This document shows positions 62 to 59,755 of a stretch of DNA of 64,000 nucleotides, piece after piece. Position 1 is the stretch's first letter; each line of letters opens with the position of its first letter. Made by a program: the position numbers and the translations under genes. The stretch comes from Sipunculus nudus (taxonomy: Eukaryota > Annelida > Sipuncula > Golfingiida > Sipunculidae): contig CM049320.1 in assembly GCA_026874595.1 (NCBI GenBank), positions 8,745,464 through 8,809,463 on the forward strand, read 5' to 3'. The notes below the pieces were generated by a model. It saw nothing but the letters and a program-made list of their open reading frames with translations, ran no database searches and was not told the DNA's origin.

Positions 62-241
62 GTAGCAGCAAGTGATGAGGAAGGAGAGGAAGAGGAAAAG
101 AGTGAAGAGGATGAAGAAGATGAAGATAAGGAAAAAGATGATGAGGCTGAGAAGGAGGAGGATGAAAAACCAAAGAAGAAAAAGAAACCCAAGAAGAAGA
201 AGAAGGCAAAGGAAGAGGAAGAAAAAGAGGAAAAAGAAAAG
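62..241 (+). CDS. Exon 1 (first visible), acidic then poly-Lys leader
   Basis: 60 codons after acceptor ...tgatcag and before donor gtaatc. It begins VAASDEEGEEEEKSEEDEED, passes through KPKKKKKPKKKKKAK and ends EEKEK. No Met starts it: the apparent upstream start is intronic, so the gene continues 5' of the window. Confidence 0.85.
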
Positions 242-3200: not shown

Positions 3201-5871
3201 GTCAAAGTCTGAGTCCAGGCCACTCAAGTCCAAGTCTGACTCCAGGACACTCATGTCCAAGTCTTAGTTCAGGCCACTCAAGTCCAAGTCTTAGTCCAGG
3301 CCACTCAAGTCCAGGTCTGAGTTGAGGCCACACAAGTCAGAATCTGAGTCTAGGCCACACATGTCAGAATCTGAGTCGAGGCCACTCAAGTGCAAGTCTT
3401 AGTCCATGCCACTCATATCAAGTCCGAGTTCAGGCCACTGTTCAAGTCTGTGTCCAGGCTATTCAAGTCCAAGTGTGAGTCTGGGCCACTCAAGTCCAAG
3501 TCTGATTCCAGGCCACTCAAGTCTGAATCTGAGTCCAGGCCACTCAAGTCCAAGTCTGAAGCTATGCCACTCAAGTCCAAGTCTGAGTCCAGGCCACTAT
3601 AGTCCAAGTCTGAGTCCAGGCTACTCAAGTCCAAGTCTGAGTTCAGGCCACTCAAGTTTAAGTCTGAGTTTAGGACAATCAAGTCCAAGTCTGACTTCAG
3701 GCCACTCAAGTCCATGTCTGAGTCCAGGCCGCTCATTGCAAGTTTGAGTCCAGGCCACTCAAGTCCAAGTCTGAGTCCAGGCCACTCAAGTCTGAATCTG
3801 AGTCCAGGCCACTCAAGTCAAAGTCTGAGTCCAGGACACTCAAGTCCAAGCTAAGCTTGGAATACAAAGTTTAATTATTTAGTAATATTAAGTTAGTAGT
3901 TTGCACATTTACATCAGTCTTTATAATATGTGACAATTTTTTTTTCTATTGGATTCAAGACAGATTCAGTATGATCGCTCAAATCCTGTACTCAAGTCCC
4001 AGTATAGTTCTATAAGTCCAAGTCTGAGTCCCTTAAAAAGTAGACATGAGTCCTACATTACAGCTTAAAAAAATAAAAGTACAAACACTGATATTTATTA
4101 AAACTAACATTGTTTTAAATGTTGTGGGAAATGTAACAATACCTGATATTGAGGAAAATTTTTACTTTAATTTATCCCCACAGAAGAAAGAAGATAAAGA
4201 AGAAGAAAAGGAGGAGAAAAAAGAGAAGACAGATGAGAAGAAAAAGAAGAAAAAAGTGGTCAAGGTAGAATTTCAGAACACTATCTAAAGCTGATGTCAT
4301 ACCTACAGCTAGTAATTATATCAACAACTGATATTGTCCCCACTTCCTTGGAAGAAAGAGGGGACATTGATTTGGGTTTGTCTAGCTGTCATTCTGTCTG
4401 TCTGTCTGTCCACAAGGTTTTTGTTTCTGTGCAATAACAATCCTAAATTGTATCTGATTTCTGCAGTTTAGAAGTTTGGATCAGTGATTGCTCTCATGCT
4501 TACCTTAATTTGTCTGAATTGGTTTTGGAGTGTCTGTCTTACAAGATAATAATACAATATGATATTTCATTTTTTATATAATGATGAATCAGCACATTTA
4601 GTTTCACTGATCACCAACAGGTGTTGCTAGCAATGGACATAAAATACTTGAATTTTTGCAGTAACTGCCAGGTGCTGCCAACTTTTGAGCATAGTTAAAA
4701 CTATTTGTACCTGGTCACCACAGCCTTTAAATTATCCCGGACTTGAAGGTGGAAGCGGGGGTCATAAATTCTGTGGAATTTGCATGTTATAGCTACAGAT
4801 GATATAATATTATTTTTCCATATGGAAGCAAATGTCATGTTAATGTCAGGGCAGTATACCTGACATGCTGGATTTCTAAGTTCCACAAATTTTCTGTTTC
4901 AGAAAAAGAAAGCAAAAGAAGACAAAACTAAAAAAGATGAAGTGAGTTTATTTAAAATAAAATGTAAACACAAATACTCTGAACAAATCAGTAGAGATAA
5001 TGAACCTTGAGCAACTTAGAAGTTCAGAGAACACAGTAGAACAGTACTAGACTAAACAGTTGACAGGACAGTTCAGTTAACTGTTTAGTGGATAAAGTGT
5101 AACTTATTTAACTGAACTGTACTGAGGAATTATAAACAGATCGTAAGTTAACTGAACAGTCCAGAAAACACAACACCACCCAAACTCAGTTAACTGAGCA
5201 TATCTGAGAACACAAGAACATCAGTTTACTGAACTGAGTTAAGAGTATACAGAGTACAGTCTTAGTTAACTGAACAGTTCAGAGGAAATTGGATATATAA
5301 GTGTTCTTTCAACATTGGGTAGCATGTCATACACAAAAAGGAAAAAATAAAATATCTTCATTTAACTTTAGATAGATGTTGAGTCAAGGTCAAAGTTTGG
5401 AAAATCTGGGCTATACTTGAAATGTAAAGCATGGTGTTTAAATGAAACATTAATTACATTTTTATATTCAGGTGGATGGAGAGAAAGAGAAGAAAAAGGA
5501 AGAAAAGAAGGTGAGAGTCTTTTCAGATATAACACTTCATTATTATTATTTTTTTATTTTTTTTATTTTTTGCTCGATTAACAGAGCAGCAAAAACAGCC
5601 CACAGGAAGCCCTGAGTCCCACATTTAAATATAGTGGAATCCTGCCTTGCAACCACCACTCAATTGAGACCACCCCACAATTACAACCACTTTTCTTGGT
5701 CCCTAATATATGATCCATATAACTTTGAATTCCACAATTATGACCACCCCAGAATTATGAACACTTTGGTCGTCACCAAGGTGGTCCTTTTTGTTGGGTT
5801 CCACTGTTTATACATTGCCTTGTGAGTTGCATTGCTTAAATATCATCTGCCATTCCCCTAAATATAATTGA

Positions 5872-5902
<31 letters not shown>

Positions 5903-8900
5903 ATCTGTAATTATCAATTGTGATTTGTTAGTTTTTGATTTTGCATTTAAATAATACTACTATTAAAATGTCAGAATTTGTCAGATTATCTGGCTGTATA
6001 GAAATTAAGAAAAAAAATTATTACATTACAATTCAAGCATATAATCCCGCTTATTATTTTTATTTTGCATTTTATTTATTGGGGCGCCCCTTCATTACAA
6101 ATGGCACAGGTCAGGTACTACCTTAGTCTTGCTCAATTCAGATATAGTGACTGATTTGAAGTACATTAGTATCTTCCCTATTCAGGGTAAAATAAACACA
6201 TTTTTTTTTATTTCAGGATGATACACCATCATTTACATTCAAGAAGAGAGAAATAGTAAGTAACACTGTATAACCTTAATTTGACATTTAATTATCTGTG
6301 TTAATTTTAAAGTTAATCAGAGCTAATCTTTCAGCAGCATTTAGCAAAACAATTTTAAAAAGAACCAGCATCCCATCATATATTTAAGATAAATTGTAGC
6401 TGTGCATCGAAATGACATAGTATGCAGTCAATAGGGCATAACATAATAGTCTGTTAATAGTTTGTGTCTGTACACATGATGTACAGTATACTGTGGTTGC
6501 CATTTTATTTGCGAGGGTTTCAAATTTGTGATGTTTGGGAAAATAAAGAAAATTATTATATAAACAAAACCTTTCTGAATAAGAGGCCTCATGGTCAAAT
6601 GTTGAAACTCAAAAGATTGGTATTATAAATAATAATTCATCTTGTATGTTACCATTAATCTACCATACTTATTATAAATAATAAGATCTTTCAAATTATC
6701 TGCTTACAATGAAAAATGATTTCTACTCGCTCAATAATCACTTGGGTATCGACCAGATTTTATATATATGTATGATTTTGCATACATGTTACTTTGTATA
6801 ATTAATTCATAAAATAATTGATCTACTCCACGTAGGTTATTGTGTGGTGATTGATAACAAAACTTGAACCAATGTGAAACAGTGAAAAGGTGAAAATCAC
6901 AAAATGTTAACATCGCGAATATGAAGCCAATCCAAGTATATACATTTAATTTGAAATCAGGTTATAACCAGCTTCTGTGGATCAGGGGTAGAGCACAGGA
7001 CTCAAAGCCTGCAGATTGTGAGTTCGATAGAATCTAAGCTGAGGTAGTTTTTCACGGTCAGCCCCCATACAGGATGAATGTTCTGCAGGCTTTATGGGAA
7101 GGCCTTGTGCCAGTTGGCTGTGTAAATTTCACTCACAAACCAGTGTGTCTTTCGGGGGTTCCATGGTGGTATGACCCAGCAGTGGGGGCGATTACACACT
7201 CAGGGCCTGCAGGTGCAGTAGTCACCAGGCCTGGTTAACTCTAGGATATTAAATGAGAGGAAGTATGTGGTACTGCCCTGTCACGTTGTCCAAAACCGCC
7301 ATGGAATTCTGCAGATGTACATATACATATGTAGTTAAGTTAGCATTAAAAATGGAGGCAATTACCTCCATAAAAAAAATATTTAAAAAAAGTTACATTG
7401 AATGAATTCTTCTTTACATTCCTTGTTGGTTCCTTAGTGTCTACAGATTACTGTTCCTTTCAGGTTGAATCTGATGATGATGACTGGGTAAGTTAACAGC
7501 AATAAAGTTTCTGGAGACATTAAACTCACAATATGGAGAAGTTAATGCTGTAATAGGAGATATTATATTTTACTATGGTATTAAAAATCTTACTTAACAT
7601 TTCTTTAAATTCCTCATAATACATTTACTTTTTAGAGGGCTGTTAAGGGCAAGGCCATAGTCCCCCATACAATTTTACATCTTTTTCAGGTTCTGCCCAC
7701 TTGACATTCCTCGAAATTTAAAAATGTTTATCTCAATGAGAGAGCTTGGCTCTTACTTAAAAAATGAATATATCTTTATAAAAATTGTTGTACAATTAAG
7801 AATATTTACCATAAGTGATCAATGTATATTTATGATAAGTGGTGACAATTTAATTCATCAAATGAATGGTTTTGCTATATAAGCATGTATAAGTTTAGTG
7901 TCTGAGATGTATAAATGTAATCTAGGCTTTGGTAGATGGAGTGTGACTTTTTCAACAACAAAAAAATTTCAGAAATTCAGTGACCTCAGGCTAAGCACAC
8001 CACTTATTTTGTTTTAATTCTTAATTTTGACAGCTTGGAGGTGGAGCAAAAGAAGAGGTGAAGGAAGAAAAGGTTGAAAAGAAGGTAAACTTATTTTATT
8101 GTATCCCCAGACAAAGTATAATTTTGCAGTAAGTAAGATCTCTGACTTATATTTACAACATGTTTAGGTTTGATTAAAGTCACAAATAAAAGGTTAAATG
8201 TACATGCATTTGAAAAGGTCATTCTTTATTCTATATTTTTTTAAAAGTAATTAATAGACCAAAAAATGTTACATCAACATTCAGTCAGTAATAGATAGTT
8301 CTGTGACATGATTGTTAAAACAGACTCTAGCAGTGGACATATTACACCATAGTACCTACTAAATCTACTTTCACAAAGACAAGGGTCACAAGACAGATAT
8401 CTCAGCAAGAGAGAACATGATTTTACGTTGATATTAACAGGCAAAGAGTTGTAAATTATAACAGCTTATATCTACCAGTAACATGAAGTTCCTGGAATCA
8501 ACCAGCGGCGGAGCACCAGAGCACATTCAATGTTTGCCTCGTGATGTCATCCTTACTCTATAATATGTACATTTATGGGCCAAATTAACTGGAGAATATT
8601 GAAAGAATTTCTGTTTGTGTGTGGTGCTGATAAAATAAACGTTTAATTCTTCTGTATATCTTATGTGTCATGTCTATTTTTTCCATAATGGATATCAAAT
8701 TTCTTGATTCATCCATTATAATTAAAGATGTTCACATTGATGACATGTGACATGTTGTTTTGTGCTTTTTTCTGCCTAACCTGATAACATATTATTTAAT
8801 AATTGCCTGCTTTAAATAAAAGCCTGCTTTGTATAATTGCCAGGTTAAAGCAGGGTCCGAAAAAATAAACACCCCAGGCATCTGATCAAGGAAATACAGT

Positions 8901-9613
8901 AGACCCAACTGGGTCACTTGTTCTGAAATGAAGCAAATTTATTTCTCAAGATGTGATGTTTTATTTTGTGAACTGAAATTTGTAAGAATGAAAGTAAATG
9001 TTCCTCTGTAAATTTTAAATTACTTTCTCACTTAGTTAACCTTGTTTGAGTAACCCCAGAATACAAGCAGTCACAGACAATACAGATATTATTTGTTGTA
9101 AAATTATTAAGTATGATGAATTTCTTCAGTGTTTATTGTGTATTGTTAACTCTGTGCATCATCTAATATGTACCTATATTATAGGATGATACTCCGACCT
9201 TCAAATTCAAGAAACCGGCATTTGTAAGTATAGTACCTTTGAATTGCCTTTATGACTACTTGCTATTTTTTATAACATTAGACACATCAATTCTCATTTT
9301 CTTAGGAATAGACATATTTATAATTCTTGAATGCATTCTAATTCAATTCACTATAACTTATAAACCTGTGCTCTTTTGGAAGTATTTCTTCAATTTTTTT
9401 ATTGCTTTTATTGAATATTTCTCACAACATACTGGCTTCAGGCCCAGTTGAACATAATGATTTTATAGAATATGTATGTTTAATATTTAGAGTATGGTGT
9501 TTTTGATTGTGGTTTGGTGATAGTTTATTTGTTTCTAATGCTTAAAACGTTATAGGAAGCAGTAAAAGTACTGTATTGATAAATTTACTACACTAGCATA
9601 GATCATATAAATG

Positions 9614-9648
<35 letters not shown>

Positions 9649-51600: not shown

Positions 51601-54600
51601 TGAGTTTGCAGAAAGTTTTATATATGATGTATTCTGGGCTTTTTTCCATCAAGTCCTACAAAATCAGTTGCAGAAAGTTTCATATTTGATGTATTCTGGA
51701 CTTATTTCCATCAAGTCCTACAAAATCAGTTGCAAAAAGTTTCATATATGATGTATTCTGGGCTTATTTCCATCATGTCCTACAAAATCAGTTGCAAAAA
51801 GTTTCATATATAATGTATTCTGGGCTTATTTCCTTGAAGACCTACAAAATCAGTTGCAGAAAGTTTCATATATGATGTATTCTGGGCTTATTTCCATCAG
51901 GTCCTACAAAAATCAGTTGCAAAAATTTTCATATATGATGTATTCTGGGCTGATTTCCAATAAGTCCTACCAAATCAGTTGCAAAGAGTTTCATATGTGA
52001 TGTATTCTGGGCTTATTTCCATCAAGACCTACAAAATCAGTTGCAAAAAGTTTCATATATGATGTATTCTGGGCTTATTTCCATCAAGTCCTACAAAATC
52101 AGTTGCAGAAAGTTTCATATATGATGTATTCTGGGCTTATTTCCATCAAGTCCTACAAAATCAGTTGCTAAAAGTTTCATATATGATGTATTCTGGGCTT
52201 ATTTCCATCAAGTCCTACAAAATCAGTTGCAAAATGTTTCATATATGATGTATTCTGGGCTTATTTCCATCAAGACCTACAAAATCAGTTGCTTAAAAGG
52301 TTTCATATATGATGTATTCTGGGCTTATTTCCATTAGGTCCTAAAAAATCAGTTGCAAAAAGTTTCATATATGATGTATTCTGGGCTGATTTCAAAATAG
52401 TCCTACCAAATTGGTTGCAAAAAGTTTCATTTGTGATGTATTCTGGGCTTATTTCCATCAGGTCCTAAAAAATCAGTTGCAAAAAGTTTCATATATGATG
52501 TATTCAGGGCTGATTTCAAAATAGTCCTACCAAATCAGTTGCAAAAAGTTTCTTTTGTGATGTATTCTGGGCTTATTTCCATCAAGTCCTACAAAATCAG
52601 TTGCAGAAAGTTTCATATGTGATGTATTCTGGGTTTATTTCCATCAAGTCCTACAAAAGTCAGTTGCAAAAAGTTTCATATGTGATGTATTCTAGGTTTA
52701 TTTCCATCAAGTCCTTCAAAATTTGTTGCAACAAGGTTTCATATATGATGAATTCTTGGCTTATTTCCATCAAGACCTTCAAAATCAGTTGCAAAAAGTT
52801 TCATATATGATGTATTTTGGGCTTATTTCCATCAAGTCCTACAAAAATCAGTTGCAAAAAGTTTCATATATGATGTATTCTGGGCTTATTTCCATTAAGT
52901 CCTTCAAAATCAGTTGCAAAAAGGTTTCATATATGAAGTATTCTTGGCTTATTTCCATCAAGTCCTACAAAATCAGTTGCAAAAGGTTTCATAAATGATG
53001 TATTATGGGTTTATTTCCATCAAGACCTACAAAATCAGTTGCTTAAAAGGTTTCATATATGATGATTTCTGGGCTTATTTCCATCAAGACCTACAAAATC
53101 AGTTGCAAAAAGGTTTCATATATGATGTATTCTGGGCTTATTTCCATCAAGACCTACAAAATCAGTTGCAAAAAGTTTCATATATGATGTATTCTGGGCT
53201 TATTTTCATCAGGTCCTTCAAAATCAGTTGCAAAAAGTTTCATATATGATGTATTCTGGGCTTATTTCCATGAAGACCTACAAAATCAGTTGCAGAAAGT
53301 TTCATATATGATGTATTCTGGGCTTATTTCCATCAAGTCCTACAAAATCAGTTGCAAAAAGTTTCATATATGATGTATTCTTGGCTTATTTCCATCAAGT
53401 CCTACAAAATCAGTTGCAAAAAGTTTCATATATGATGTATTCTGGGCTTATTTCCATCAGGTCCTAAAAAATCAGTTGCAAAAAGTTTCATATATGATGT
53501 ATTCTGGGCTGATTTCAAATAAGTCCTACCAAATCAGTTGCAAAAAGTTTCATTTGTGATGTATTCTGGGCTTATTTCCATCAAGTCCTACAAAATCAGT
53601 TGCAGAAAGTTTCATATGTGATGTATTCTGGGTTTATTTCCATTAAGACCTACAAAATCAGTTGCAAAAAGTTTCATATATGATGTATTCTTGGCTTATT
53701 TCCATCAAGTCCTACAAAATGAGTTTGCAAAAAGTTTCATATATAATGTATTCTGGGCTTATTTCCATCAAGTCCTACAAAATCAGTTGCAAAAAGTTTC
53801 ATATATGATGTATTCTGGGCTTATTTCCATCAAGTCCTTCAAAATCAGTTGCAAAAAGGTTTCATATATGAAGTATTCTAGGCTTATTTTCATAAAGTCC
53901 TACCAAATCAGTTGCAGAAAGTTTCATATATGATGTATTCTGGGCTTATTTCCATCAAGTCCTACAAAATCAGTTGCAAAAAGTTTCATATATGATGTAT
54001 TCTTGGCTTATTTCCATCAAGTCCTACAAAATCAGTTGCAGAAAGTTTCATATATGATGTATTCTGGGCTTATTTCCATGAAGACCTACAAAATCAGTTG
54101 CAGAAAGTTTCATATATGATGTATTCTGGGCTTATTTCCATCAAGTCCTACAAAATCAGTTGCAAAAAATTTCATATATGATGTATTCTGGGCTTATTTC
54201 CATCAAGTCCTACAAAATCAGTTGCAAAAAGTTTCATATATGATGTATTCTGGGCTTATTTCCATCAAGTCCTACAAAATCAGTTGCGAAAAGCTTACTA
54301 TATGATGTATTCTGGGCTTATTTCCATCAAGTCCTACAAAATCAGTTGCAAAAAGTTTCATATATGATGTATTCTGGGCTTATTTCCATCAAGTCCTTCA
54401 AAATCAGTTGCAAAAAGGTTTCATATATGAAGTATTCTAGGCTTATTTTCATAAAGTCCTACCAAATCAGTTGCAAAAAGTTTCATATATGATGTATTCT
54501 GGGCTTATTTCCATCAGGTCCTAAAAAATCAGTTGCAAAAAGTTTCATATATGATGTATTCTGGGCTGATTTCAAATAAGTCCTACCAAATCAGTTGCAA

Positions 54601-57600
54601 AAAGTTTCATTTGTGATGTATTCTGGGCTTATTTCCATCAAGTCCTACAAAATCAGTTGCAGAAAGTTTCATATGTGATGTATTCTGGGTTTATTTCCAT
54701 TAAGACCTACAAAATCAGTTGCAAAAAGTTTCATATATGATGTATTCTGGGCTTATTTCCATCAAGTCCTACAAAATGAGTTTGCAAAAAGTTTCATATA
54801 TAATGTATTCTGGGCTTATTTCCATCAAGTCCTACAAAATCAGTTGCAAAAAGTTTCATATATGATGTATTCTGGGCTTATTTCCATCAAGTCCTTCAAA
54901 ATCAGTTGCAAAAAGGTTTCATATATGAAGTATTCTTGGCTTATTTCCATCAAGTCCTACAAAATCAGTTGCAAAAAGTTTCATATATGATGTATTATGG
55001 GTTTATTTCCATCAAGACCTACAAAATCAGTTGCAAAAAGGTTTCATATATGATGATTTCTGGGCTTATTTCCATCAAGACCTACAAAATCAGTTGCAAA
55101 AAGTTTCATATATGATGTATTCTGGGCTTATTTCCATCAAGTCCTACAAAATCAGTTGCAAAAAGCTTACTATATGATGTATTCTGGGCTTATTTCCATC
55201 AAGTTCTACAAAATCAGTTGCAAAAAGTTTCATATATGATGTATTCTGGGCTTAATTCCATCAAGTCCTACAAAATCAGTTGCAAAAAGTTTCATATATG
55301 ATGTATTCTGGGCTTATTTCCATGAAGACCTACAAAATCAGTTGCAAAAAGTTTCATATATGATGTATTCTGGGCTCATTTCCATCAAGACCTACAAAAT
55401 CAGTTGCAAAAAGTTTCATTTATAATGTATTCTGGGCTTATTTCCATCAAGTCCTACAAAATCAGTTGCAAAAAGTTTCATATATGATGTATTCTGGATT
55501 TATTTCCATCAAGTCCTACAAAATCAGTTGCAAAAAGTTTCATATATGATGTATTCTGGGCTTATTTCCATTAAGACCTACAAAATCAGTTGCAAAAAGT
55601 TTCATATATGATGTATTCTGGGCTTATTTCCATCAAGTCCTACAAAATCAGTTTCAAAAAGTTTCATATATGATGTATTCTGGGCTTATTTCCATCAAGT
55701 CCTACGAAATCAGTTGCAAAAATTTTCATATATAATGTATTCTGGGCTGATTTCCAATAAGTCCTACAAAATCAGTTGCAAAAATTGTCATACATGATGT
55801 ATTCTGGGCTGATTTCCAATAAGTCCTACCAAATCAGTTGCAAAAAGTTTCATATATGATTTATTCTGGGCTGATTTCCATTAAGTCCTACAAATTCAAT
55901 TGCTAAAAGTTTCATATATAATGTTTTCCAGGCTAATTTCCATTAAGTGCTTCAAAAATCAGTGTATTTAATACAAAAGATATAATGAATGACTATCAAC
56001 TTTTATTCACTATCTGTCAGCTGAGAGCTGAACTTCTGCAATGTTGGCTTAGACAGAAGTGAAATTATATATTTCTTTAAATTTTTTAATGAGTCCTTTT
56101 TATATCATAAAAATTGGTCATAAATTAAAATTATCATATTGTATTAGTATTTTTAACACCAGGATAAGGTATGATACAACATTTATTTATGTTTAAAAAT
56201 AATTTTTTCAAATTTAGTATCATTTAGTAATATTAATTATTATGAAATGAAGAACATAAAGCCAGAGTTGACAGGAATTGTTGTTGTGCAGAATTAAAAT
56301 ATGTGTGTCATAGCTAGCAATACTTCTGTTCATGTATTCAAATATCTGTATTGCTGGTAGTGTATTTTTGCTTCATGTGTTAACAGATGTAGCTTGATTT
56401 TGCTATTACAGCTTCATATGTTTATATATAGTTGTAGTGGACTGCAATTTGTCGTGTATTATTTAAGTAATTCTGTGGTAGTGGCGGTGGTAGTTGTTTT
56501 ATAATTTTCTACTTCATGTATGTTGCTGTGTGTGGCAGTAGTGGTGATATAATTTTGTACTATATATATATTGCTGTGTGTGGTGATGATTTTTGCTTGT
56601 GCTTGACTGTAGAAGAAGAAGGAACCCACTCCCCCACCAACCTTCAGAAGGTTCAGGAAACCCTGGGTAAACCTCTCAACAACTCATACGTAACATGTCT
56701 CACCAAATGTATCATGTGATATATAATGCCATGCTCCTATATGAAATTTAAAATTATCATGTATTTTTTTACTTTATAACATACTTAAAATGCCTGTGTT
56801 GTCATATATTATATGAAACAGTCAGAAATGATCATTTCCAAGTAGTACACTAATCTTTTCTAACCTTAACTGACCTTTTAAGTATATTTCCATAAAGAAT
56901 AAACATAACACAACAGAACATATTTACTAGGTGTGTAATGTATCATGTACATCGATGTAAGGCTATTTATACAAATATGCATTAAATCACGTGTCTCAGT
57001 ATGTTTTAAAGGGAGAGAGTATATTTCATGTTCTCCACCGAAATGTACTGGAAAAAAATATAATTTCAAGATTACTCTTCTTTCATATATATCTATTTAG
57101 TCACTAAGTGACACTGGGTGATCTTCTCATGAAGTTTTTTTTTTAATCAGCTGTCACATTTCTTTATTAAGTTACTTCTCAATTCGATGCATGTCACTTA
57201 CCCATTATAAATATTCCAATTCCACCAGCTTGTTTAATCAAACTCAGCTTTATATACATGTTATCTCAATTCTGTTCAGGTACAGTGAACAGACTTTTCA
57301 GAAATGCTAACTTTGCAAGGAATTAAAAAAATTGATGTCACAATAAAAAATATAAAAAAAACCCAAAATGCAAAAGAATCTACCTCAGTTTTTTTCAATT
57401 TAAATAAAAATTTTCTTTTAAAAAATTAAGGCATTTTCTTGTTTCAATTAATTTTATATATTCAATCATATTTGTCACAGGATTTTTAACTTTCAATTAA
57501 TTTTTAATTATTTTATTTTTATTTGATATTCTTGTTTTCAGATTCTTTGTTTGAGTAAAAAAAACATTGTATTTCATATTTTCAGTTTTTAGTACATGAT

Positions 57601-59755
57601 TTTCCTTAACTTGGTGTTAATTATATACTCTAGGTATTATAGATGTAATCATTTCTGGCTAATGATAATATTTTAAGATATGTCATAACAATATTTTGCT
57701 ATAAAGAAAAATATAGATTATTATTATTAAATGTACATTTAAGATATGTTCATGAATTATGACATCTTAAAACAAGAACAAAAATCCAATTTAGTAGTTT
57801 TTCACTGGTCTCTTATCATGTTTGAACCTTTTTACATTTATTTTCACATTTATTTTTTCTTTTTAATATTATATCAGGAGGACAGTGATGAAGATGAACC
57901 ACCCAAGGTAAATTTGAATTACCTGTTTCTCACACTTTACCTGACCTAGTCTGCTTAGCCTTATCAATATACCTTGCAATTTAATATATACAAGTAAGGC
58001 ATGCAGTGTCACCATAAATATATGTGAGCCTGTGCACATAACAAGATAGACAATATTTACACATATATTTTGCTATTTAAGGTAGATAAAGGGAGGATGT
58101 ATCTTCCCAATTGTGAAGTACCACATACATGATTTCTTTTGTAATTGTAAAGAAATGTAGCAGTTTGTGTCTGATATAACTAAAAGTAGGAAATATATTA
58201 ACTGGCCTTGTGGCTGTGTTGTCTTACCTGCATCCTCATTCAATAGATGATTTCACAAATAGGTCAATGACTTAAAATGCTCATGTCCTAAATGGGCTTC
58301 ATTGTCAAGGGATACTTTGGCACATCAGGAATGACAGACTTATTTAATTTTGTAAAAGGGGCAGAGAAATCTCAACCTAATTTTTTTCAGGAGATTTTAA
58401 GTTGAGATCTAAAATTAAAAATAAATTCAACTGAAGTGCATTAATTCACACAACAAGCTTCCAACATATCTAATTTCCAGCATAACATTTTGGTTTTCTT
58501 TGCCTAACATAACTCTCTCTTTAACTTTTGTTTATATTTGTTTTATTTATTCAGAAGGCTCCTGAGAAGAAAAAGGTAGAGTCAGAGTCAGACAAGTCAG
58601 AGTCTGAGGACGAGCCTCCACCAAAGGTATTAACAAACATACACACCATAGTAATACTTACACTCCATTCTCCATTATTTTTACTCTTTTAAAGGGGCCC
58701 AATCACCTATAAAGCATGTTGAGTTAACACGAAAAATAGCTCCTTCCTCTAAAATAAATCTGTACCAAAAATAAATCTATACTTAAAGTAAATCTGTCCA
58801 TCATGTGTCATAATGTGTGGAAAATGCCCTTATCTTTATGCAGGGGATGTGCAATGTATGTTTCTGACCTTTGGATTCTAAGTAAATACACATATACTTA
58901 GAATGCATATCACATCTTTATTCAGTGTGTGATAAAAAATGGTGAATTTGCTGCTGATTTCACTCTTTATTCATTCTTTATTTCAAAGAAACTTTTTTCT
59001 CTTTTTTAACGAGAGGACTTACTCGTTTTTTCAGTCATTTACCTTTGACAGGCCTATAGGGGATTTCATTAAGGATTCCCTCGATCTTGACCTTCCTGTT
59101 TCAGTTTGGTTGATTGATAAAAGTCGGGTTGATCATTGTTTTATTTTACTTACAGCCTGCTGCAGCACCAATGACCTTCAGAAAGTTCAAGAAAGCTTGG
59201 GTAAGTACAGGGCTGGCCTTCAGCATAATACAGCATTTTGTTGATGGAGGACCAGTGGAGGGACCTGCATTCTTTTATTGTTCTGCTGTTTTATGTTAAG
59301 ACTTTGAGATATTGTATACAAGTTTTGAAAAGTCACATCAATATTTATTTCATCTTTGTAATGTCCTCTGATCATTAAATGGATTATAACATATTTTATA
59401 CTATGTTTTATAATTTTGGTGTTTTTTTTTTTTAGAAATCAAATGGTTATCTTTAACTTGTTGTTTTTACAGGTAAATAAAGAAAAGAAAATGGGAGAGG
59501 CATATGTTGTATTTTTTCACATGATTTTAAACCTAGTAGCTAAAAGTCAAACTAACTCAGTGATATTGCATACAAGGTTATTTAATTTTGTAGTCAATTT
59601 GTGACTTTGTATGAAACTATGGGTTGAGAGGAGACAAGGAGTGCCATCTGTCTTCATTTAGCAGAACTAGGAGTACCTACTCTTTAAAAAGAAATCAAAT
59701 TATGACTTAGTGATTATTTTTACAGGAGAGTGATGAAGAACCAGACTGGGGTTAA
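62..59755 (+). CDS. Modular KEKE/DDW-repeat protein gene, 43 exons, 5' partial
   Basis: I see 43 short exons bounded by AG and GT, every one a whole number of codons in phase 0, together about 840 codons with one terminal TAA. Composition is dominated by Lys, Glu, Asp and Ser. Exons 1-5 are a charged leader. Exons 6-43 form 12 repeats of linker (K/E-rich, often LGGG at the start), basic-aromatic segment (DDTPTFKFKK or TFRKFKKPW) and acidic segment (SDDDDW or EDSDE). There is no signal peptide, membrane helix or enzyme motif in the visible part; the start codon and promoter lie upstream of base 1. KEKE-type runs and tiny in-frame exons recall triadin-like or PEVK-like disordered proteins, but the W-ended acidic repeat matches no family I know, so no function is given. 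Phase symmetry would allow any exon to be skipped in frame. Exon structure is well supported; identity is unknown. Confidence 0.88.
480..695 (+). CDS. Exon 2 (possible), Ser/Pro/Thr-rich insert
   Basis: 72 codons, phase 0-0, acceptor ctccaccag and donor GAG|gtaaaa. It encodes VSGFTSPPRQSNNIETPSPS and then a neutral stretch with FNIGRLLLKSAPP. Composition is unlike every other exon (almost no Lys/Glu runs), so it may be an alternatively used cassette or a false exon. The open frame in AT-rich DNA and matching phase argue for it. Confidence 0.55.
881..1042. mobile_element. Short TIR element (MITE), CAGNRGAACCCCAC ends
   Basis: The left end CAGGAGAACCCCAC and right end GTGGGGTTCCACTG are near-perfect inverted repeats about 160 bp apart, preceded by TA. 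The interior carries repeated 'gtggtc/ggaccaag' text. A related element is at 5632-5806. The pattern fits a small Tc1/pogo-type non-autonomous element. Confidence 0.5.
1146..1274 (+). CDS. Exon 3, Lys/Glu leader
   Basis: 43 codons, acceptor gactgctgcag, donor GAG|gtgaga. It starts ESEKEEVDEEITKDEAKEVK and continues into KKKKKKDEDEEEEE, a KEKE-type charged run. Confidence 0.87.
1676..2024 (+). mobile_element. tRNA-headed SINE, copy 1
   Basis: The head cttctgtggatcaggggta resembles a pol III A box and gagttggaatctc resembles a B box. A body of about 280 bp follows, shared with the copy at 6972-7353 (cagggcctgcaggtgcagtagtcaccaggcctggttaa block), and it ends in tagcattaaaa. It lies in the intron between exons 3 and 4 and is not a functional tRNA. 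Confidence 0.7.
2085..3850. repeat. 27-bp minisatellite, about 65 copies
   Basis: The unit is ctcaatgcaaagtctgagtc plus caggcca; later units carry ctcaagtccaagtctgag variants. About eleven nearly identical units sit at 2280-2580, and a diverged block around 2790-3050 recurs around 3535-3760 (higher-order copy). Because 27 is divisible by 3, several frames on both strands stay open for hundreds of bases, an arithmetic effect. Degenerate tail text continues to about 4035. Confidence 0.95.
4184..4264 (+). CDS. Exon 4, Lys-rich leader
   Basis: 27 codons: KKEDKEEEKEEKKEKTDEKK then KKKKVVK. Acceptor tatccccacag, donor AAG|gtagaa. Confidence 0.85.
4903..4941 (+). CDS. Exon 5, 13-residue Lys-rich exon
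   Basis: KKKAKEDKTKKDE between ttctgtttcag and gtgagt, 39 nt, phase 0. Confidence 0.85.
5010..5290. repeat. Degenerate GTTAACTGAACAG repeats
   Basis: At least six diverged copies of a motif like agttaactgaacagttcag separated by acac-rich text. The motif is itself partly palindromic (CTGAACtGTTCAG). It is intronic. Confidence 0.6.
5472..5510 (+). CDS. Exon 6, module 1 linker
   Basis: VDGEKEKKKEEKK, 39 nt, acceptor tatattcag, donor AAG|gtgaga. First linker directly preceding a basic-aromatic exon. Confidence 0.86.
5632..5806. mobile_element. Short TIR element, GTGGAA...TTCCAC ends
   Basis: Starts tagtggaatcctgcc and ends gggttccactg. The internal text (gaccaccccacaattacaacca) matches the family at 881-1042. 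A (TA)n tract follows at about 5876-5901. Confidence 0.45.
6217..6255 (+). CDS. Exon 7, module 1 basic-aromatic segment
   Basis: DDTPSFTFKKREI, 39 nt, acceptor ttttttatttcag, donor gtaagt. Founding example of the DDTPxFxFKK motif. Confidence 0.92.
6972..7353 (+). mobile_element. tRNA-headed SINE, copy 2
   Basis: The A-box-like tggatcaggggtagagca and B-box-like gtgagttcga are intact or nearly so; the body aligns with 1676-2024 and ends tagcattaaaaa. It is about 380 bp and intronic, in the same orientation as the gene. Confidence 0.72.
7464..7487 (+). CDS. Exon 8, module 1 acidic microexon
   Basis: VESDDDDW, exactly 24 nt, acceptor gttcctttcag, donor TGG|gtaagt. Confidence 0.92.
8034..8084 (+). 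CDS. Exon 9, module 2 linker
   Basis: LGGGAKEEVKEEKVEKK, 51 nt, acceptor attttgacag, donor AAG|gtaaac. First LGGG-type linker. Confidence 0.92.
9185..9223 (+). CDS. Exon 10, module 2 basic-aromatic segment
   Basis: DDTPTFKFKKPAF, 39 nt, acceptor tatattatag, donor gtaagt. Confidence 0.92.
9619..10110. repeat. (TA)n tract then CATCAT-rich degenerate microsatellite
   Basis: About 30 bases of (TA)n at 9619-9648 precede some 400 bases dominated by catcat/atcatc triplets (9690-10100) in the intron between exons 10 and 11. Confidence 0.75.
10128..10151 (+). CDS. Exon 11, module 2 acidic microexon
   Basis: ADSDDDDW, 24 nt, acceptor tattttgtag, donor TGG|gtgagt. Confidence 0.92.
10549..10617 (+). 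CDS. Exon 12, module 3 linker with weak donor
   Basis: 23 codons, LGGGDEKEEEKKEEKEEKKE then EKK, acceptor ttttttttag. The donor is gttgtg, poor against the gtaagt/gtgagt used elsewhere; the frame reaches TGA at once if not spliced here. Confidence 0.87.
10805..11266. mobile_element. About 460-bp dispersed element (MITE-like), copy 1
   Basis: This segment recurs at 32244-33131 in direct orientation, with long matching runs such as aaggtggtaggttgcatata and cttatctgacttgctgccag. The start ttaaagctgcccattcacct is roughly inverted at the far end of the other copy (gatgattggccccctt). It lies in the intron after an LGGG exon in both places, so intron paralogy is an alternative. Confidence 0.6.
11297..11332 (+). 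CDS. Exon 13, module 3 basic-aromatic segment
   Basis: DDTPTFKFKKPY, 36 nt (one residue shorter than its paralogs), acceptor gattttttttag, donor gtaagt. Confidence 0.92.
12572..12595 (+). CDS. Exon 14, module 3 acidic microexon
   Basis: EESDDDDW, 24 nt, acceptor taattctacag, donor TGG|gtgagt. Confidence 0.92.
13488..13547 (+). CDS. Exon 15, module 4 linker
   Basis: LGGGDEEKKEEKKEEKKEEK, 20 codons with a clean KKEE periodicity. Acceptor tgttcttacag, donor AAG|gtaagt. Confidence 0.92.
14937..17563. mobile_element. INE/'pearl'-like element with two long core repeats
   Basis: It follows TTTTT and starts with an imperfect hairpin, agctcagcagactatgagtc then atctgagct, followed by a cgtccgtctgtc tract. 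Two core units of about 680 and 610 bp follow (15046-15725 and 15726-16340; both contain 'gggcccaaacataatgca'). It ends cagctgagcgccgtgaccca then taggtcccttg, followed by T6. The termini match those of the 38036-45436 element. No transposase or Rep/helicase frame is visible, so it is non-autonomous. Class assignment is inference from structure. Confidence 0.65.
17962..18000 (+). CDS. Exon 16, module 4 basic-aromatic segment
   Basis: DDTPSFTFKSRTY, 39 nt, acceptor atttcccccag, donor gtaagt. KK is replaced by KSR. Confidence 0.92.
18001..19924 (+). other. Intron between exons 16 and 17
   Basis: AT-rich noncoding DNA. It has a (TGAA)n tract at 18954-18985 and a stretch near 19060-19200 (aatgcatgcatgatatactc, ggttgataatacac) that resembles 22715-22850 in the equivalent intron of module 5. 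No other feature seen. Confidence 0.6.
19925..19948 (+). CDS. Exon 17, module 4 acidic microexon
   Basis: DSDEEDDW, 24 nt, acceptor tcatacag, donor TGG|gtgagt. Confidence 0.92.
20787..20849 (+). CDS. Exon 18, module 5 linker
   Basis: LAGGDKDKKEEKKEEKKEEK plus K, 63 nt, acceptor gtcctaacag, donor AAG|gtaagt. Close paralog of exon 15 with LAGG instead of LGGG. Confidence 0.92.
21558..21596 (+). CDS. Exon 19, module 5 basic-aromatic segment
   Basis: DDTPAFKFKSRGY, 39 nt, acceptor tttgcccccag, donor gtaagt. Flanking intron text resembles that of exon 16. Confidence 0.92.
21597..23575 (+). other. Intron between exons 19 and 20
   Basis: AT-rich noncoding DNA with scattered A/T runs and (GAAA)n near 22476-22490. 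Apart from similarity to the module 4 intron near 22715-22850, I see nothing else. Confidence 0.55.
23576..23599 (+). CDS. Exon 20, module 5 acidic microexon
   Basis: DSDEDDDW, 24 nt, acceptor taattatatag after a long T run, donor TGG|gtgagt. Confidence 0.92.
24083..24142 (+). CDS. Exon 21, module 6 linker
   Basis: LAGDKEEEKKEEPKEEKIEK, 60 nt, acceptor tactttcag, donor AAG|gtaaag. The intron after it (about 24175-24640) carries weak repeats of 'gtaaaatatgtagaaagaac'. Confidence 0.9.
24934..24975 (+). CDS. Exon 22, module 6 basic-aromatic segment
   Basis: KDDTPSFTFKKRDY, 42 nt (one extra N-terminal Lys), acceptor tgtattccag, donor gtgagt. Confidence 0.92.
25712..25735 (+). CDS. Exon 23, module 6 acidic microexon
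   Basis: DSEEEDDW, 24 nt, acceptor tttaatattag, donor TGG|gtgagt. Confidence 0.92.
26018..26201. mobile_element. 184-bp pogo/Tigger-like MITE
   Basis: Left end cagtgaaacctcattgtgtc and right end gacacagtgaggtttcactg are inverted repeats of about 27 bp with few mismatches (tcgaactcg against cgactttga inside). TA follows the right end and TAA precedes the left. There is no coding capacity, so it is non-autonomous. It sits in the intron between exons 23 and 24. Confidence 0.75.
26202..27694 (+). other. Remainder of intron between exons 23 and 24
   Basis: Noncoding. A short 'caccatagtaacct' motif recurs around 27058-27115. I see no exon, RNA gene or mobile element. Confidence 0.5.
27695..27805 (+). 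CDS. Exon 24, module 7 linker part 1 (Ser-rich)
   Basis: 37 codons. It starts LAGDGDEKKDEKESSSSSDE, with acidic EEDEEEED and an AKSSKK end. Acceptor ggctaaatag (poor pyrimidine tract), donor AAG|gtaaga. First linker with a Ser run followed by acids, which would suit CK2-type phosphorylation (inference). Confidence 0.87.
28177..28251 (+). CDS. Exon 25, module 7 linker part 2
   Basis: LGGGSDVEEKKEEKKEVKKE then ESSSE, 25 codons, acceptor ccccatcatag, donor GAG|gtagct. Two linkers in a row (24, 25) suggest a module whose middle and acidic exons were lost, or a linker duplication. Confidence 0.88.
28252..29528 (+). other. Intron between exons 25 and 26
   Basis: Noncoding. Its last 70 bases (catagaaaccag onwards) align with the sequence before the dead exon at 33343. 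Nothing else recognised. Confidence 0.5.
29529..29567 (+). CDS. Exon 26, module 7 basic-aromatic segment (Arg type)
   Basis: RPTFGFRNFRRPR, 39 nt, acceptor cctgttccag, donor AGG|gtaaga. Marks the shift from FKFKK to FRNFRRP, leading to the later TFRKFKKPW type. Confidence 0.9.
30382..30405 (+). CDS. Exon 27, module 7 acidic microexon
   Basis: ESDEDDDW, 24 nt, acceptor taattcctcag, donor TGG|gtgagt. Confidence 0.92.
31339..31369. repeat. Perfect 12-bp hairpin, probable end of a repeat element
   Basis: ttatgtctcccc, loop of 7, ggggagacataa. Text after it (gtttggtctggcagccgcag) differs in composition from the intron. This looks like the 5' hairpin of an INE/Helitron-like relic; its far end is not found here. 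Confidence 0.5.
31505..31795. repeat. 54-bp tandem repeat, about 3 good plus diverged copies
   Basis: Core 'gatttccacaaagttcaa' recurs at 54-bp spacing (near 31527, 31581, 31635) with 'tcttgtgagaag' and 'tgagagatgag' between; flanking copies decay. The open minus-strand frame here reflects the 54 = 18 x 3 period. Confidence 0.8.
31924..32007 (+). CDS. Exon 28, module 8 linker
   Basis: 28 codons, LGGGDDKEEKKEDKEEEKEK then KKEDSSSE; acceptor atttgttgtag, donor GAA|gtaata. Ends SSSE like exon 25, so modules 7 and 8 are sister copies. Confidence 0.89.
32244..33131. mobile_element. MITE-like element, copy 2, interrupted
   Basis: Aligns with 10805-11266 across 32687-33131 and, more weakly, 32244-32270, with a 404-bp insertion between. 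Right end gatgattggcccccttta. It lies between exon 28 and the dead exon. Confidence 0.58.
32271..32674. mobile_element. 404-bp GC-rich insertion with 12-bp target duplication
   Basis: The segment is bounded by identical cttatgaaaaag at 32259-32270 and 32675-32686. It is far richer in G+C than its surroundings. A plus-strand frame is open from about 32413 past 32680 and contains MPFECRTPSCERHYFETQSP followed by CTCGFGHLD, a Cys/His-rich stretch. A 12-bp duplication suggests LINE-mediated retroposition of a transcript. I do not recognise the source; a degraded coding fragment or a SINE body are both possible. Confidence 0.65.
33343..33381 (+). pseudogene. Dead basic-aromatic exon of module 8
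   Basis: This 39-nt block aligns with exon 26 and reads HAPMTLRNFRRPW in the right phase with donor TGG|gtaaaa, but the acceptor dinucleotide is AA (gttgcaa|cat) where exon 26 has AG (gttccag|cga). Upstream text (catagaaacc) also aligns. An in-frame TGA at 33310-33312 and absence of any AG before 33361 rule out a nearby phase-0 rescue. Skipping it leaves exon 28 to 29 in frame. Confidence 0.72.
33708..33755 (+). CDS. Exon 29, module 8 acidic exon
   Basis: EDSEDDEDEEESDGEV, 48 nt, acceptor ctgttatccag, donor GTG|gtagga. Longer than the 24-nt type and without the terminal Trp. Confidence 0.87.
33756..35665 (+). other. Intron between exons 29 and 30, upstream of the tandem duplication
   Basis: Noncoding, AT-rich. 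It has repeated 'gtcagggaa' words near 34060 and 34475, a G16 run at 34100-34115, (CA)n at about 35237-35250, and a 'cagcattaaaaa' motif near 34688 like the SINE tail. No gene seen. Confidence 0.5.
35769..35831 (+). CDS. Exon 30, module 9 linker part 1
   Basis: ATSKKAEKKEESEEDESEEE plus K, 63 nt. Acceptor is T7 then attcag; the donor is the weak gtcaga. Confidence 0.87.
36253..36306 (+). CDS. Exon 31, module 9 linker part 2
   Basis: PKKKEEPKKEEEKKEEKK, 54 nt, acceptor tatactacag, donor AAG|gtaaat. Confidence 0.89.
36835..36873 (+). CDS. Exon 32, module 9 basic-aromatic segment
   Basis: DAVPTLRKFKKPW, 39 nt, acceptor ctttttcctag, donor TGG|gtgagt. The terminal Trp is now on this exon rather than on the acidic one. 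Confidence 0.91.
37796..37825 (+). CDS. Exon 33, module 9 acidic exon
   Basis: EDSDEEEADL, 30 nt, acceptor ttccattacag, donor TTG|gtaaga. Confidence 0.9.
38036..45436. mobile_element. 7.4-kb INE/'pearl'-like element, 338-bp tandem core
   Basis: It starts with hairpin agctcagctgactgaaagtc then atctgagct (38036-38064), followed by a ctgtccgt microsatellite (38082-38138). About 16 core units of 337-341 bp and three shorter ones follow; landmark words are 'ggcacaaatcgtaacgactg', 'gtaccccccaga' and 'ggtggcgccacctgtatt'. It ends gtcagctgagtg, hairpin TGACCCctGGGTCA (45419-45432) and cttg. CTCAGCTGAC at 38038-38047 is inverted as GTCAGCTGAG at 45404-45413. Extra 5' heads occur at 39107 and 40691. 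There is no long ORF, so it is non-autonomous. Termini plus T-tract target fit Helentron-associated INEs (inference). Confidence 0.75.
39232..40434. mobile_element. 1.2-kb TIR DNA element nested in the 7.4-kb element
   Basis: Terminal inverted repeats of 25 bp are perfect (ccgtaaaatctgtgaaattt... and its complement ending ...aaatttcacagattttacgg), flanked by TA at 39230-39231 and 40435-40436. The uninterrupted sister unit at 40815 reads tcttctTActtgac, confirming a TA target. The interior has two diverged copies of a block of about 110 bp (near 39594 and 39944) and no transposase frame. It fits a non-autonomous TA-targeting (Tc1/mariner-like) element. Confidence 0.88.
45447..45509 (+). CDS. 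Exon 34, module 10 linker part 1
   Basis: Same 21 residues as exon 30 (ATSKKAEKKEESEEDESEEE plus K). The acceptor attcag survives, but the original T7 tract is now the element's cacttg plus TTTT. The donor is again gtcaga. Confidence 0.84.
45932..45985 (+). CDS. Exon 35, module 10 linker part 2
   Basis: PKKKEEPKKVEEKKEEKK, identical to exon 31 except Glu to Val at position 10. Confidence 0.88.
46514..46552 (+). CDS. Exon 36, module 10 basic-aromatic segment
   Basis: DAVPTLRKFKKPW, same residues as exon 32 with one silent change (CCC to CCT). Confidence 0.9.
47478..47507 (+). CDS. Exon 37, module 10 acidic exon
   Basis: EDSDEEEADL, identical to exon 33. Confidence 0.89.
47932..48010 (-). 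mobile_element. MITE end, ctttaaaggggctcaatcac type, inverted copy
   Basis: On the minus strand this matches 58688-58766 (tttaaaggggcycaatcacc, gcatgtt, aaaatagct, aaataaatctgtacc). The outer boundary is not resolved; the element may reach back to about 47840. Confidence 0.55.
48135..48317 (+). CDS. Exon 38, module 11 linker (longest linker)
   Basis: 61 codons. It starts GSSDKKEEEKKEEKKKVVSE, has a Ser/Glu-rich middle with PKPAPKKKVVSSSSEDESEG and ends DKSE. Acceptor tttgctaataaag, donor GAG|gtatga. It contains two VVS...S(D/E) blocks and several possible CK2 sites (inference). G+C is higher than in neighbouring exons. Confidence 0.86.
48318..51128 (+). other. Intron after exon 38, before the satellite
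   Basis: Mostly AT-rich noncoding DNA. A compositionally distinct, G+C-richer patch at about 49750-50115 has an open minus-strand frame of 101 codons (49808-50113, includes SSWALQGLSKDWPRLSP); I do not recognise it. Confidence 0.5.
51129..55965. repeat. 62-bp satellite array, about 78 copies
   Basis: Consensus contains gtattctgggcttatttcca, tcaagtcctacaaaatcagt and tgcaaaaagtttcatatatg. Copies are head to tail without spacers. Higher-order copying is visible: a four-unit block of about 249 bp at 51182 repeats at 51431, and marker variants (gagtttgcaa; ctaggcttattttcataaag) recur at about 1057 and 559 bp. It fills more than half of the intron between exons 38 and 39. Open frames inside reflect the repeat. 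Confidence 0.97.
55966..56612 (+). other. End of intron between exons 38 and 39
   Basis: AT-rich noncoding DNA after the satellite; a 'gtgtgtggcagtagtggtg' word group lies near 56470-56590. Nothing else seen. Confidence 0.5.
56613..56666 (+). CDS. Exon 39, module 11 basic-aromatic segment
   Basis: KKKEPTPPPTFRRFRKPW, 54 nt, acceptor tgactgtag, donor TGG|gtaaac. A Pro-rich lead-in precedes the TFRRFRKPW core. Confidence 0.89.
56667..57877 (+). other. Intron between exons 39 and 40
   Basis: Strongly AT-rich, with many A and T runs. I see no exon, repeat array or element. Confidence 0.5.
57878..57907 (+). CDS. Exon 40, module 11 acidic exon
   Basis: EDSDEDEPPK, 30 nt, acceptor tattatatcag, donor AAG|gtaaat. 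Confidence 0.88.
58555..58626 (+). CDS. Exon 41, module 12 linker
   Basis: 24 codons, KAPEKKKVESESDKSESEDE then PPPK, acceptor tatttattcag, donor AAG|gtatta. DEPPPK echoes the DEPPK end of exon 40. Confidence 0.89.
58688..58766 (+). mobile_element. MITE end, tttaaaggggcccaatcacc type
   Basis: Matches the minus strand of 47932-48010 over about 80 bp. It starts at a TTTAAAGGGG terminus loosely like the ends of the 10805 and 32244 elements. The other end is not resolved. Confidence 0.55.
59156..59200 (+). CDS. Exon 42, module 12 basic-aromatic segment
   Basis: PAAAPMTFRKFKKAW, 45 nt, acceptor tttacttacag, donor TGG|gtaagt. Confidence 0.91.
59726..59755 (+). CDS. Exon 43, terminal acidic exon with stop
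   Basis: ESDEEPDWG followed by TAA (59753-59755), acceptor tatttttacag. Last acidic segment; Trp reappears and one Gly is added. Confidence 0.92.
   Translation, partial: ESDEEPDWG

What the first reader, a model, noticed from the sequence alone, without database searches (positions are those of the whole stretch)
5472..59755. Twelve-module gene built from charge-patterned microexon triplets
Seen: linker (K/E), basic-aromatic (DDTPTFKFKK or TFRKFKKPW) and acidic (SDDDDW or EDSDE) exons recur in fixed order 12 times over 54 kb, seven of the acidic exons being exactly 24 nt. Known: KEKE- and PEVK-type disordered repeats exist. Inference: this alternation of basic-aromatic and acidic-Trp segments joined by charged spacers is a sticker-and-spacer protein built by repeated genomic duplication of a three-exon cassette. 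I know no described family with this unit.
Basis: partly seen in the sequence, partly recalled or inferred. Interest (0 to 1): 0.88.

Follow-up and report, generated by a model that had tools for sequence, protein, structure and literature searches.

The report
Actin-cap relative with modular charged tail
The repeated mini-exons are real and appear to form the long charged tail of an animal gene whose front part, just outside the window, is an SH3BGR domain, a family some of whose human members were recently shown to cap actin filaments; I found no description of this repeating tail.

Summary
On the + strand, 12 linker/basic-aromatic/acidic sets run from 5472 to 59755 and end in a stop codon. 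Seven acidic exons are exactly 24 nt; every modelled exon is a multiple of three and phase 0. One set (M8) has a basic exon without an AG acceptor. Genome-wide, an acidic-exon pattern has 7 hits and a basic-exon pattern 5, all here. Differences between copies fall mainly at third codon positions. Introns of M4/M5 and of M9/M10 align in register, so cassettes were duplicated with their introns.

The interpretation needs a major addition. Two to nine kb upstream of the window lie three exons encoding an SH3BGR thioredoxin-fold domain (PF04908, E=2.1e-29), then six acidic/Lys-rich exons, same strand, all phase 0. I infer one SH3BGR-family gene (47 exons, 68.9 kb, 924 aa) whose Glu-rich tail became modular. 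Human SH3BGRL relatives cap actin pointed ends (PMC12827327). Most likely the head docks on actin and the splice-tunable tail is a multivalent polyampholyte; the tail's function is inference, no transcript was available, and the species is unidentified. Verdict: new variant of a known kind.

The parts
62..241 (+). stem exon S3, VAASDEEGEEEE...KEEKEK, 180 nt. Further exons of the same gene lie upstream of the window: head H1 -9139..-9095, H2 -3641..-3456, H3 -2267..-2154, stem S1 -1592..-1548, S2 -775..-704 (window coordinates; L011)
   Evidence: phase 0, AG/GT
1146..1274 (+). stem exon S4, acidic/Lys-rich
4184..4264 (+). stem exon S5, Lys/Glu-rich
4903..4941 (+). stem exon S6, Lys-rich
5472..7487 (+). 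module M1: linker 5472-5510, basic 6217-6255 (DDTPSFTFKKREI), acidic 7464-7487 (VESDDDDW)
8034..10151 (+). module M2: linker 8034-8084, basic 9185-9223 (DDTPTFKFKKPAF), acidic 10128-10151 (ADSDDDDW)
10549..12595 (+). module M3: linker 10549-10617 (weak donor), basic 11297-11332, acidic 12572-12595
13488..19948 (+). module M4: linker 13488-13547, basic 17962-18000, acidic 19925-19948
   Evidence: introns align with those of M5
20787..23599 (+). module M5: linker 20787-20849, basic 21558-21596, acidic 23576-23599
24083..25735 (+). module M6: linker 24083-24142, basic 24934-24975, acidic 25712-25735
27695..30405 (+). module M7: extra linker 27695-27805, linker 28177-28251, basic 29529-29567 (RPTFGFRNFRRPR), acidic 30382-30405
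31924..33752 (+). module M8: linker 31924-32007, basic exon remnant 33346-33381 without AG acceptor (left out of the model), acidic 33708-33752
35769..37825 (+). module M9: extra linker 35769-35831 (weak donor), linker 36253-36306, basic 36835-36873 (DAVPTLRKFKKPW), acidic 37796-37825 (EDSDEEEADL)
45447..47507 (+). module M10, recent copy of M9: extra linker 45447-45509 (weak donor), linker 45932-45985, basic 46514-46552, acidic 47478-47507
   Evidence: block 98.4% identical over 2,223 aligned columns
48135..57907 (+). module M11: long Ser-rich linker 48135-48317 (weak splice sites), basic 56613-56666 (KKKEPTPPPTFRRFRKPW), acidic 57878-57907
58555..59755 (+). module M12 and end of gene: linker 58555-58626 (weak donor), basic 59156-59200, last exon 59726-59755 ESDEEPDWG-stop

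Best explanation
An SH3BGR-family gene of an animal, with a catalytically dead thioredoxin-fold head (3 exons), an acidic/Lys-rich stem (6 exons) and a tail of 12 repeated three-exon modules. Shown: the exons, their phase, the SH3BGR match of the head, the restriction of the exon patterns to this locus, third-position bias, cassette duplication with introns. Inferred: all exons form one gene. Inferred: the head docks on actin filaments, as human SH3BGRL proteins do at pointed ends. Inferred: the tail is a disordered polyampholyte in which basic-aromatic segments (PTFKFKK, TLRKFKKPW) bind acidic surfaces such as F-actin or the acidic-Trp segments of other tails, so that many weak contacts tether or condense filaments around the docked head. 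Because every intron is phase 0, any set of cassettes can be skipped or kept without a frameshift, so splicing could set tail length and valency.
For: Head: PF04908 E=2.1e-29, 1.7e-27 as the only Pfam family at E<=0.01 in the whole 924-aa model; solved SH3BGRL2 and SH3BGRL chains 2ct6, 8iah and others, E down to 2.3e-20. The head has no Cys and keeps a PIPPQVF motif (read from the sequence). Head-to-tail continuity: same strand, 561-nt intron between H3 and S1, all exons phase 0; the model ends in a stop after the 12th acidic exon. Function of relatives: SH3BGRL proteins weakly nucleate actin and cap pointed ends; muscle SH3BGR has a Glu-rich C-terminal extension and was not tested (PMC12827327; abstract, passages, Introduction, interface section and part 1 of the Discussion). 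SH3BGR co-localises with sarcomeric alpha-actinin (PMC8541172, passages). Constraint: pairwise differences by codon position 0.081/0.104/0.378 in six basic cores and 0.143/0.208/0.327 in seven acidic exons; flanking intron 0.60-0.71. Tail: charged fraction 0.67, net charge per residue -0.14, 12 Trp, 22 Phe, no Cys in 809 aa.
Against: No RNA: that head, stem and modules share a transcript is inferred. Of 13 pointed-end contact positions listed in the interface section for SH3BGRL, this head keeps 5 by my reading of the alignment (G12, S13, K17, I39, A40; R46 is not kept), so pointed-end capping by this head is uncertain. No second animal genome was available, so conservation between species is untested. 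Kappa of the modules is only about 0.23. Several splice sites are weak. Nothing tested here shows that the tail binds anything.
Confidence: 0.55

Rival explanations
1. Elastic or length-setting tether. The tail is an entropic spring or ruler, comparable in role to titin PEVK, and cassette number sets its length; the segments have no specific partner.
For: Phase-0 cassettes, high charge, low hydrophobicity; muscle expression and sarcomere role of vertebrate SH3BGR; recent module gain.
Against: Conserved aromatic and Trp positions and the fixed basic/acidic order are more specific than a bare spring needs. Composition is not PEVK: Pro 4.9%, Val 2.6%.
Confidence: 0.2
2. Largely passive expansion: an acidic tail tolerates repeats, and the modules spread by duplication without a dedicated function.
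For: M8's basic exon has lost its acceptor; M9/M10 is a very recent duplication; linkers vary in length.
Against: Third-position bias and preserved splice sites in old copies whose introns have mostly lost alignable similarity.
Confidence: 0.15
3. Separate gene. The modules start downstream of the SH3BGR exons and encode an unrelated new protein.
Against: Same strand, all phase 0, stem exons of Glu/Lys-rich sequence between, 530-nt intron between stem and M1; a Glu-rich C-terminal extension is what distinguishes muscle SH3BGR.
Confidence: 0.05
4. Multivalent nucleation-promoting tail: the acidic-Trp exons act as DDW-type Arp2/3-binding motifs and the basic-aromatic exons as actin-binding elements.
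For: Cortactin and HS1 bind Arp2/3 through an acidic DDW motif next to F-actin-binding repeats (PMC554100, passages); seven acidic exons here end in D-D-W and the last exon in PDWG.
Against: The resemblance is three letters in an acidic context; no WH2 or cortactin repeat was found by Pfam; a profile of the basic-acidic unit found no solved structure.
Confidence: 0.05

Closest known systems
Vertebrate SH3BGR (muscle) and the SH3BGRL family (TPECs)
   Same: SH3BGR/PF04908 domain without Cys, PXXP and PPXXF motif, Glu-rich C-terminal extension as in SH3BGR
   Different: Family members are described as 10-20 kDa; this model is 924 aa, its extension built of 12 basic/acidic modules from cassette exons
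Yeast Aip5
   Same: SH3BGRL-like thioredoxin-fold actin-binding part combined with a long disordered region that drives assembly and condensates (PMC6838200 passages; PMC12827327)
   Different: Disordered part is N-terminal; the sequence match to an Aip5 chain is not significant (E=0.12)
Cortactin / HS1
   Same: Acidic DDW motif and repeats each encoded by exons of equal length (five exons of 111 nt)
   Different: No cortactin repeat or SH3 domain here; here the DDW unit itself is repeated
Titin PEVK and KEKE segments (recalled)
   Same: Many small in-frame exons and charged disordered sequence
   Different: Low Pro and Val; alternating basic-aromatic and acidic-Trp units

Membership tests
SH3BGR family (PF04908) | SH3BGR domain above Pfam cut-off | tested here: met
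   102 bits against a cut-off of 21, residues 1-97 on profile 1-98 of 99
SH3BGR family (PF04908) | Thioredoxin fold without CXXC or CXXS/T | tested here: met
   No Cys in the three head exons (sequence); the fold is inferred from matches to solved SH3BGRL chains, not modelled
SH3BGR family (PF04908) | PLPPQIF-type motif (PXXP and PPXXF) | tested here: met
   PIPPQVF in H2; motif as described in the paper's Introduction
SH3BGR family (PF04908) | Glu-rich C-terminal extension (SH3BGR itself) | tested here: met
   Tail Glu 27.4%, given that head and tail are one gene, which is inferred
SH3BGR family (PF04908) | Small protein, 10-20 kDa | tested here: not met
   Model of 924 aa if all 47 exons are joined; short isoforms cannot be excluded. 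Size is descriptive in the paper, the domain is what defines membership
SH3BGRL pointed-end cappers (TPECs) | Pointed-end contact residues | tested here: inconclusive
   5 of 13 listed zone-1 positions identical to SH3BGRL by eye
SH3BGRL pointed-end cappers (TPECs) | Pointed-end capping activity | not testable with these tools
   needs purified protein
Titin PEVK | Pro-Glu-Val-Lys-rich repeats | tested here: not met
   Pro 4.9%, Val 2.6% of 809 tail residues; definition recalled
Cortactin/WASP-type Arp2/3 activators | Acidic Trp motif together with WH2 or cortactin repeats | tested here: inconclusive
   DDW present seven times; no WH2 or cortactin repeat at E<=0.01
Single alpha-helix (E4K4-type) segments | Opposite charges at i to i+4 outnumber like charges | tested here: not met
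   Like charges outnumber opposite ones at i+4 in 14 of 15 linkers, M12 being the exception; criterion recalled

The most novel reading that the evidence does not exclude
A splice-tunable multivalent actin regulator: an SH3BGR head that holds filament pointed ends, fused to up to twelve cassette-encoded pairs of a basic-aromatic actin-binding element and a DDW-type acidic element, so that a cell sets nucleation strength or condensate valency by how many cassettes it splices in.
Probability: 0.08. Interest if true: 0.85.

Novelty: new variant of a known kind. Interest (0 to 1): 0.5.

Why it matters
The role of the Glu-rich extension that gave SH3BGR its name is open: the paper that defines SH3BGRL proteins as pointed-end cappers did not analyse SH3BGR. 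A relative in which that extension has become discrete, countable modules on in-frame cassette exons gives a natural series of tail lengths and valencies for testing what the extension does. It is also a clear case of a disordered, charge-patterned tail that grew by duplication of a three-exon cassette, with one recent copy (M9/M10) and one decaying exon (M8) caught in the act.

Tried and rejected
Chance or a frame artefact: rejected by the scans, shuffles and genome-wide patterns, with the caveat that these were written from the exons themselves. A tRNA, Rfam RNA or repeat origin of the exons: no Rfam family at gathering score and no tRNA in the window; the tandem arrays lie in introns. Neural microexon programme: no TGC in the 30 nt before 12 of 12 acidic exons (the TGC rule is recalled). 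RBFOX sites: GCATG 1.70 per kb in 150 nt upstream and 1.14 per kb downstream of exons against 1.00 per kb over the gene, untested for significance, so no claim. Single alpha-helix linkers: disfavoured by the i+4 charge count. Repeat in SH3BGR paralogs: PF04908 found two further loci, on C6 and C3; a charged-exon scan of 30 kb around each, about 20 kb downstream, gave two short non-modular segments at C6, both before its first exon, and none at C3, whose first exon I did not find. Prokaryote and viral collections: 0 matches to a basic-exon pattern in each, uninformative for animals. Species: molluscan haemocyanin PF14830 gave 0 matches but rang in none of the 14 control genomes either, so it shows nothing; egg lysin PF01303 did not complete. 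Papers: SH3BGR with mollus 0; SH3 domain-binding glutamic with bivalve 1 and with oyster 1, the same Perna shell proteome, which names a scallop 'isoform X5'; four peptide strings 0; SH3BGRL2 with spectrin and junctional complex 0; microexon with mollus and duplicat 10 papers, 8 listed, read as listing only. The library holds open-licence PMC papers only, so absence in print is not shown. No structure prediction was run.

Full report
What is there. The window is G000:C15:8745464-8809463 of a 1.43-Gb genome in 153 contigs. All 47 exons are multiples of three and all introns phase 0. Of 46 acceptors all are AG; of 46 donors 45 are GT and one (H3) is GC. Exon calling was by hand from motif and splice-site scans, not by a gene finder, and several sites are weak (listed in the observation check).

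Anatomy. Head: H1-H3, 115 aa. Stem: S1-S6, acidic and Lys-rich. Tail: modules M1-M12. M1-M6 carry DDTPxFxFK basic exons; M7 has RPTFGFRNFRRPR; M9-M12 have TLRKFKKPW-like exons. The acidic exons of M1-M7 are 24 nt and end in DDW; those of M8-M11 are longer and lack Trp; M12 ends PDWG-stop. Linkers begin LGGG, LAGG or LAGD in M2-M8, and consist mainly of K and E, with Ser-rich stretches from M7 on. M8's basic exon keeps a donor and coding similarity but has no AG acceptor, so I left it out.

Is it more than chance. The acidic pattern with its donor occurs 7 times in the genome, all at this locus and on this strand; the backwards control occurs once. The basic pattern with its acceptor occurs 5 times, all here, controls 0. 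Equivalent local scans gave nothing on the other strand, in 200 kb of flank or in 20 shuffles. Substitutions between copies concentrate at third positions, most clearly in the basic cores (0.081, 0.104, 0.378), less in the acidic exons (0.143, 0.208, 0.327), while adjacent intron differs at 0.60-0.71. This is what purifying selection on a protein would give.

How it grew. Intron-against-intron BLAST finds matches in register between M4 and M5 (linker-basic introns 64% over 289 and 71% over 130 bp, basic-acidic introns 63% over 793 bp, entry introns 93% over 41 bp) and between M9 and M10 (98.8-99.6%). A block of 2.2 kb, 35756-37967 and 45434-47653, is 98.4% identical. So at least two steps copied a whole cassette with introns; for the other modules the introns no longer show in-register similarity over long stretches, and their common origin rests on the exons.

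What gene it is. The head matches PF04908 at 2.1e-29 and solved SH3BGRL2 and SH3BGRL chains at E about 1e-20 to 1e-12; the whole model matches no other Pfam family at E up to 0.01. The repeat unit has no match in Pfam or in solved structures. Two other SH3BGR loci exist in the genome; near them I found no module-like exons. That head and tail are one gene is inferred from strand, spacing, phase and the Glu-rich extension known for SH3BGR.

How it may work. Human SH3BGRL proteins use the thioredoxin fold to cap pointed ends and weakly nucleate actin, and their C-terminal stretches modulate contact with the terminal protomer and perhaps tropomodulin; muscle SH3BGR, which has the Glu-rich extension, was not analysed (PMC12827327). 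SH3BGR lies at the sarcomere with alpha-actinin (PMC8541172 passages). Yeast Aip5 joins a related fold to a disordered region that drives oligomers and condensates (PMC6838200 passages). By analogy I propose docking by the head and multivalent, electrostatic and aromatic contacts by the tail, with valency set by in-frame exon choice. Against easy transfer: only 5 of 13 listed contact positions are kept in this head, and nothing here tests binding by the tail. The tail's charge segregation exceeds shuffles (0 of 300) but is moderate (kappa about 0.23).

Novelty. The family is known; the modular tail was not found in the searches made, which cover open-licence papers only. An automatic annotation name with isoform number for a scallop relative, quoted in a shell proteome (PMC6641155 passage), shows that related genes with several predicted isoforms are already in databases; whether they carry this tail I could not test. 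The species was not identified; a bivalve is a guess from genome size and contig sizes.

Noticed in passing
2087-3850: 27-bp minisatellite, about 66 copies, in the intron between stem exons S4 and S5.
   Followed up: no
38140-39098, 40779-44973, 44812-45281: 338-bp satellite-like arrays (and a 166-bp period) in the intron between M9 and M10; related sequence also lies in the first intron of the gene, near window -6522.
   Followed up: partly
51114-55963: 62-bp array of about 78 copies inside the M11 linker-basic intron, making that intron 8.3 kb.
   Followed up: no
33346-33381: Basic exon of M8 with intact donor but no AG acceptor: an apparently decaying cassette exon.
   Followed up: partly
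1669-2023 and 6965-7351: Two interspersed repeat copies about 71% identical in introns; the second resembles a tRNA-derived short element to my eye (not classified).
   Followed up: no
window -2154 (L011): Exon H3 of the head ends at a GC donor (GCAAGT), the one non-GT donor of the model.
   Followed up: no
L022 (C6) and L024 (C3): Two further SH3BGR-domain loci in the genome, without module-like exons in the 30 kb examined around each.
   Followed up: partly
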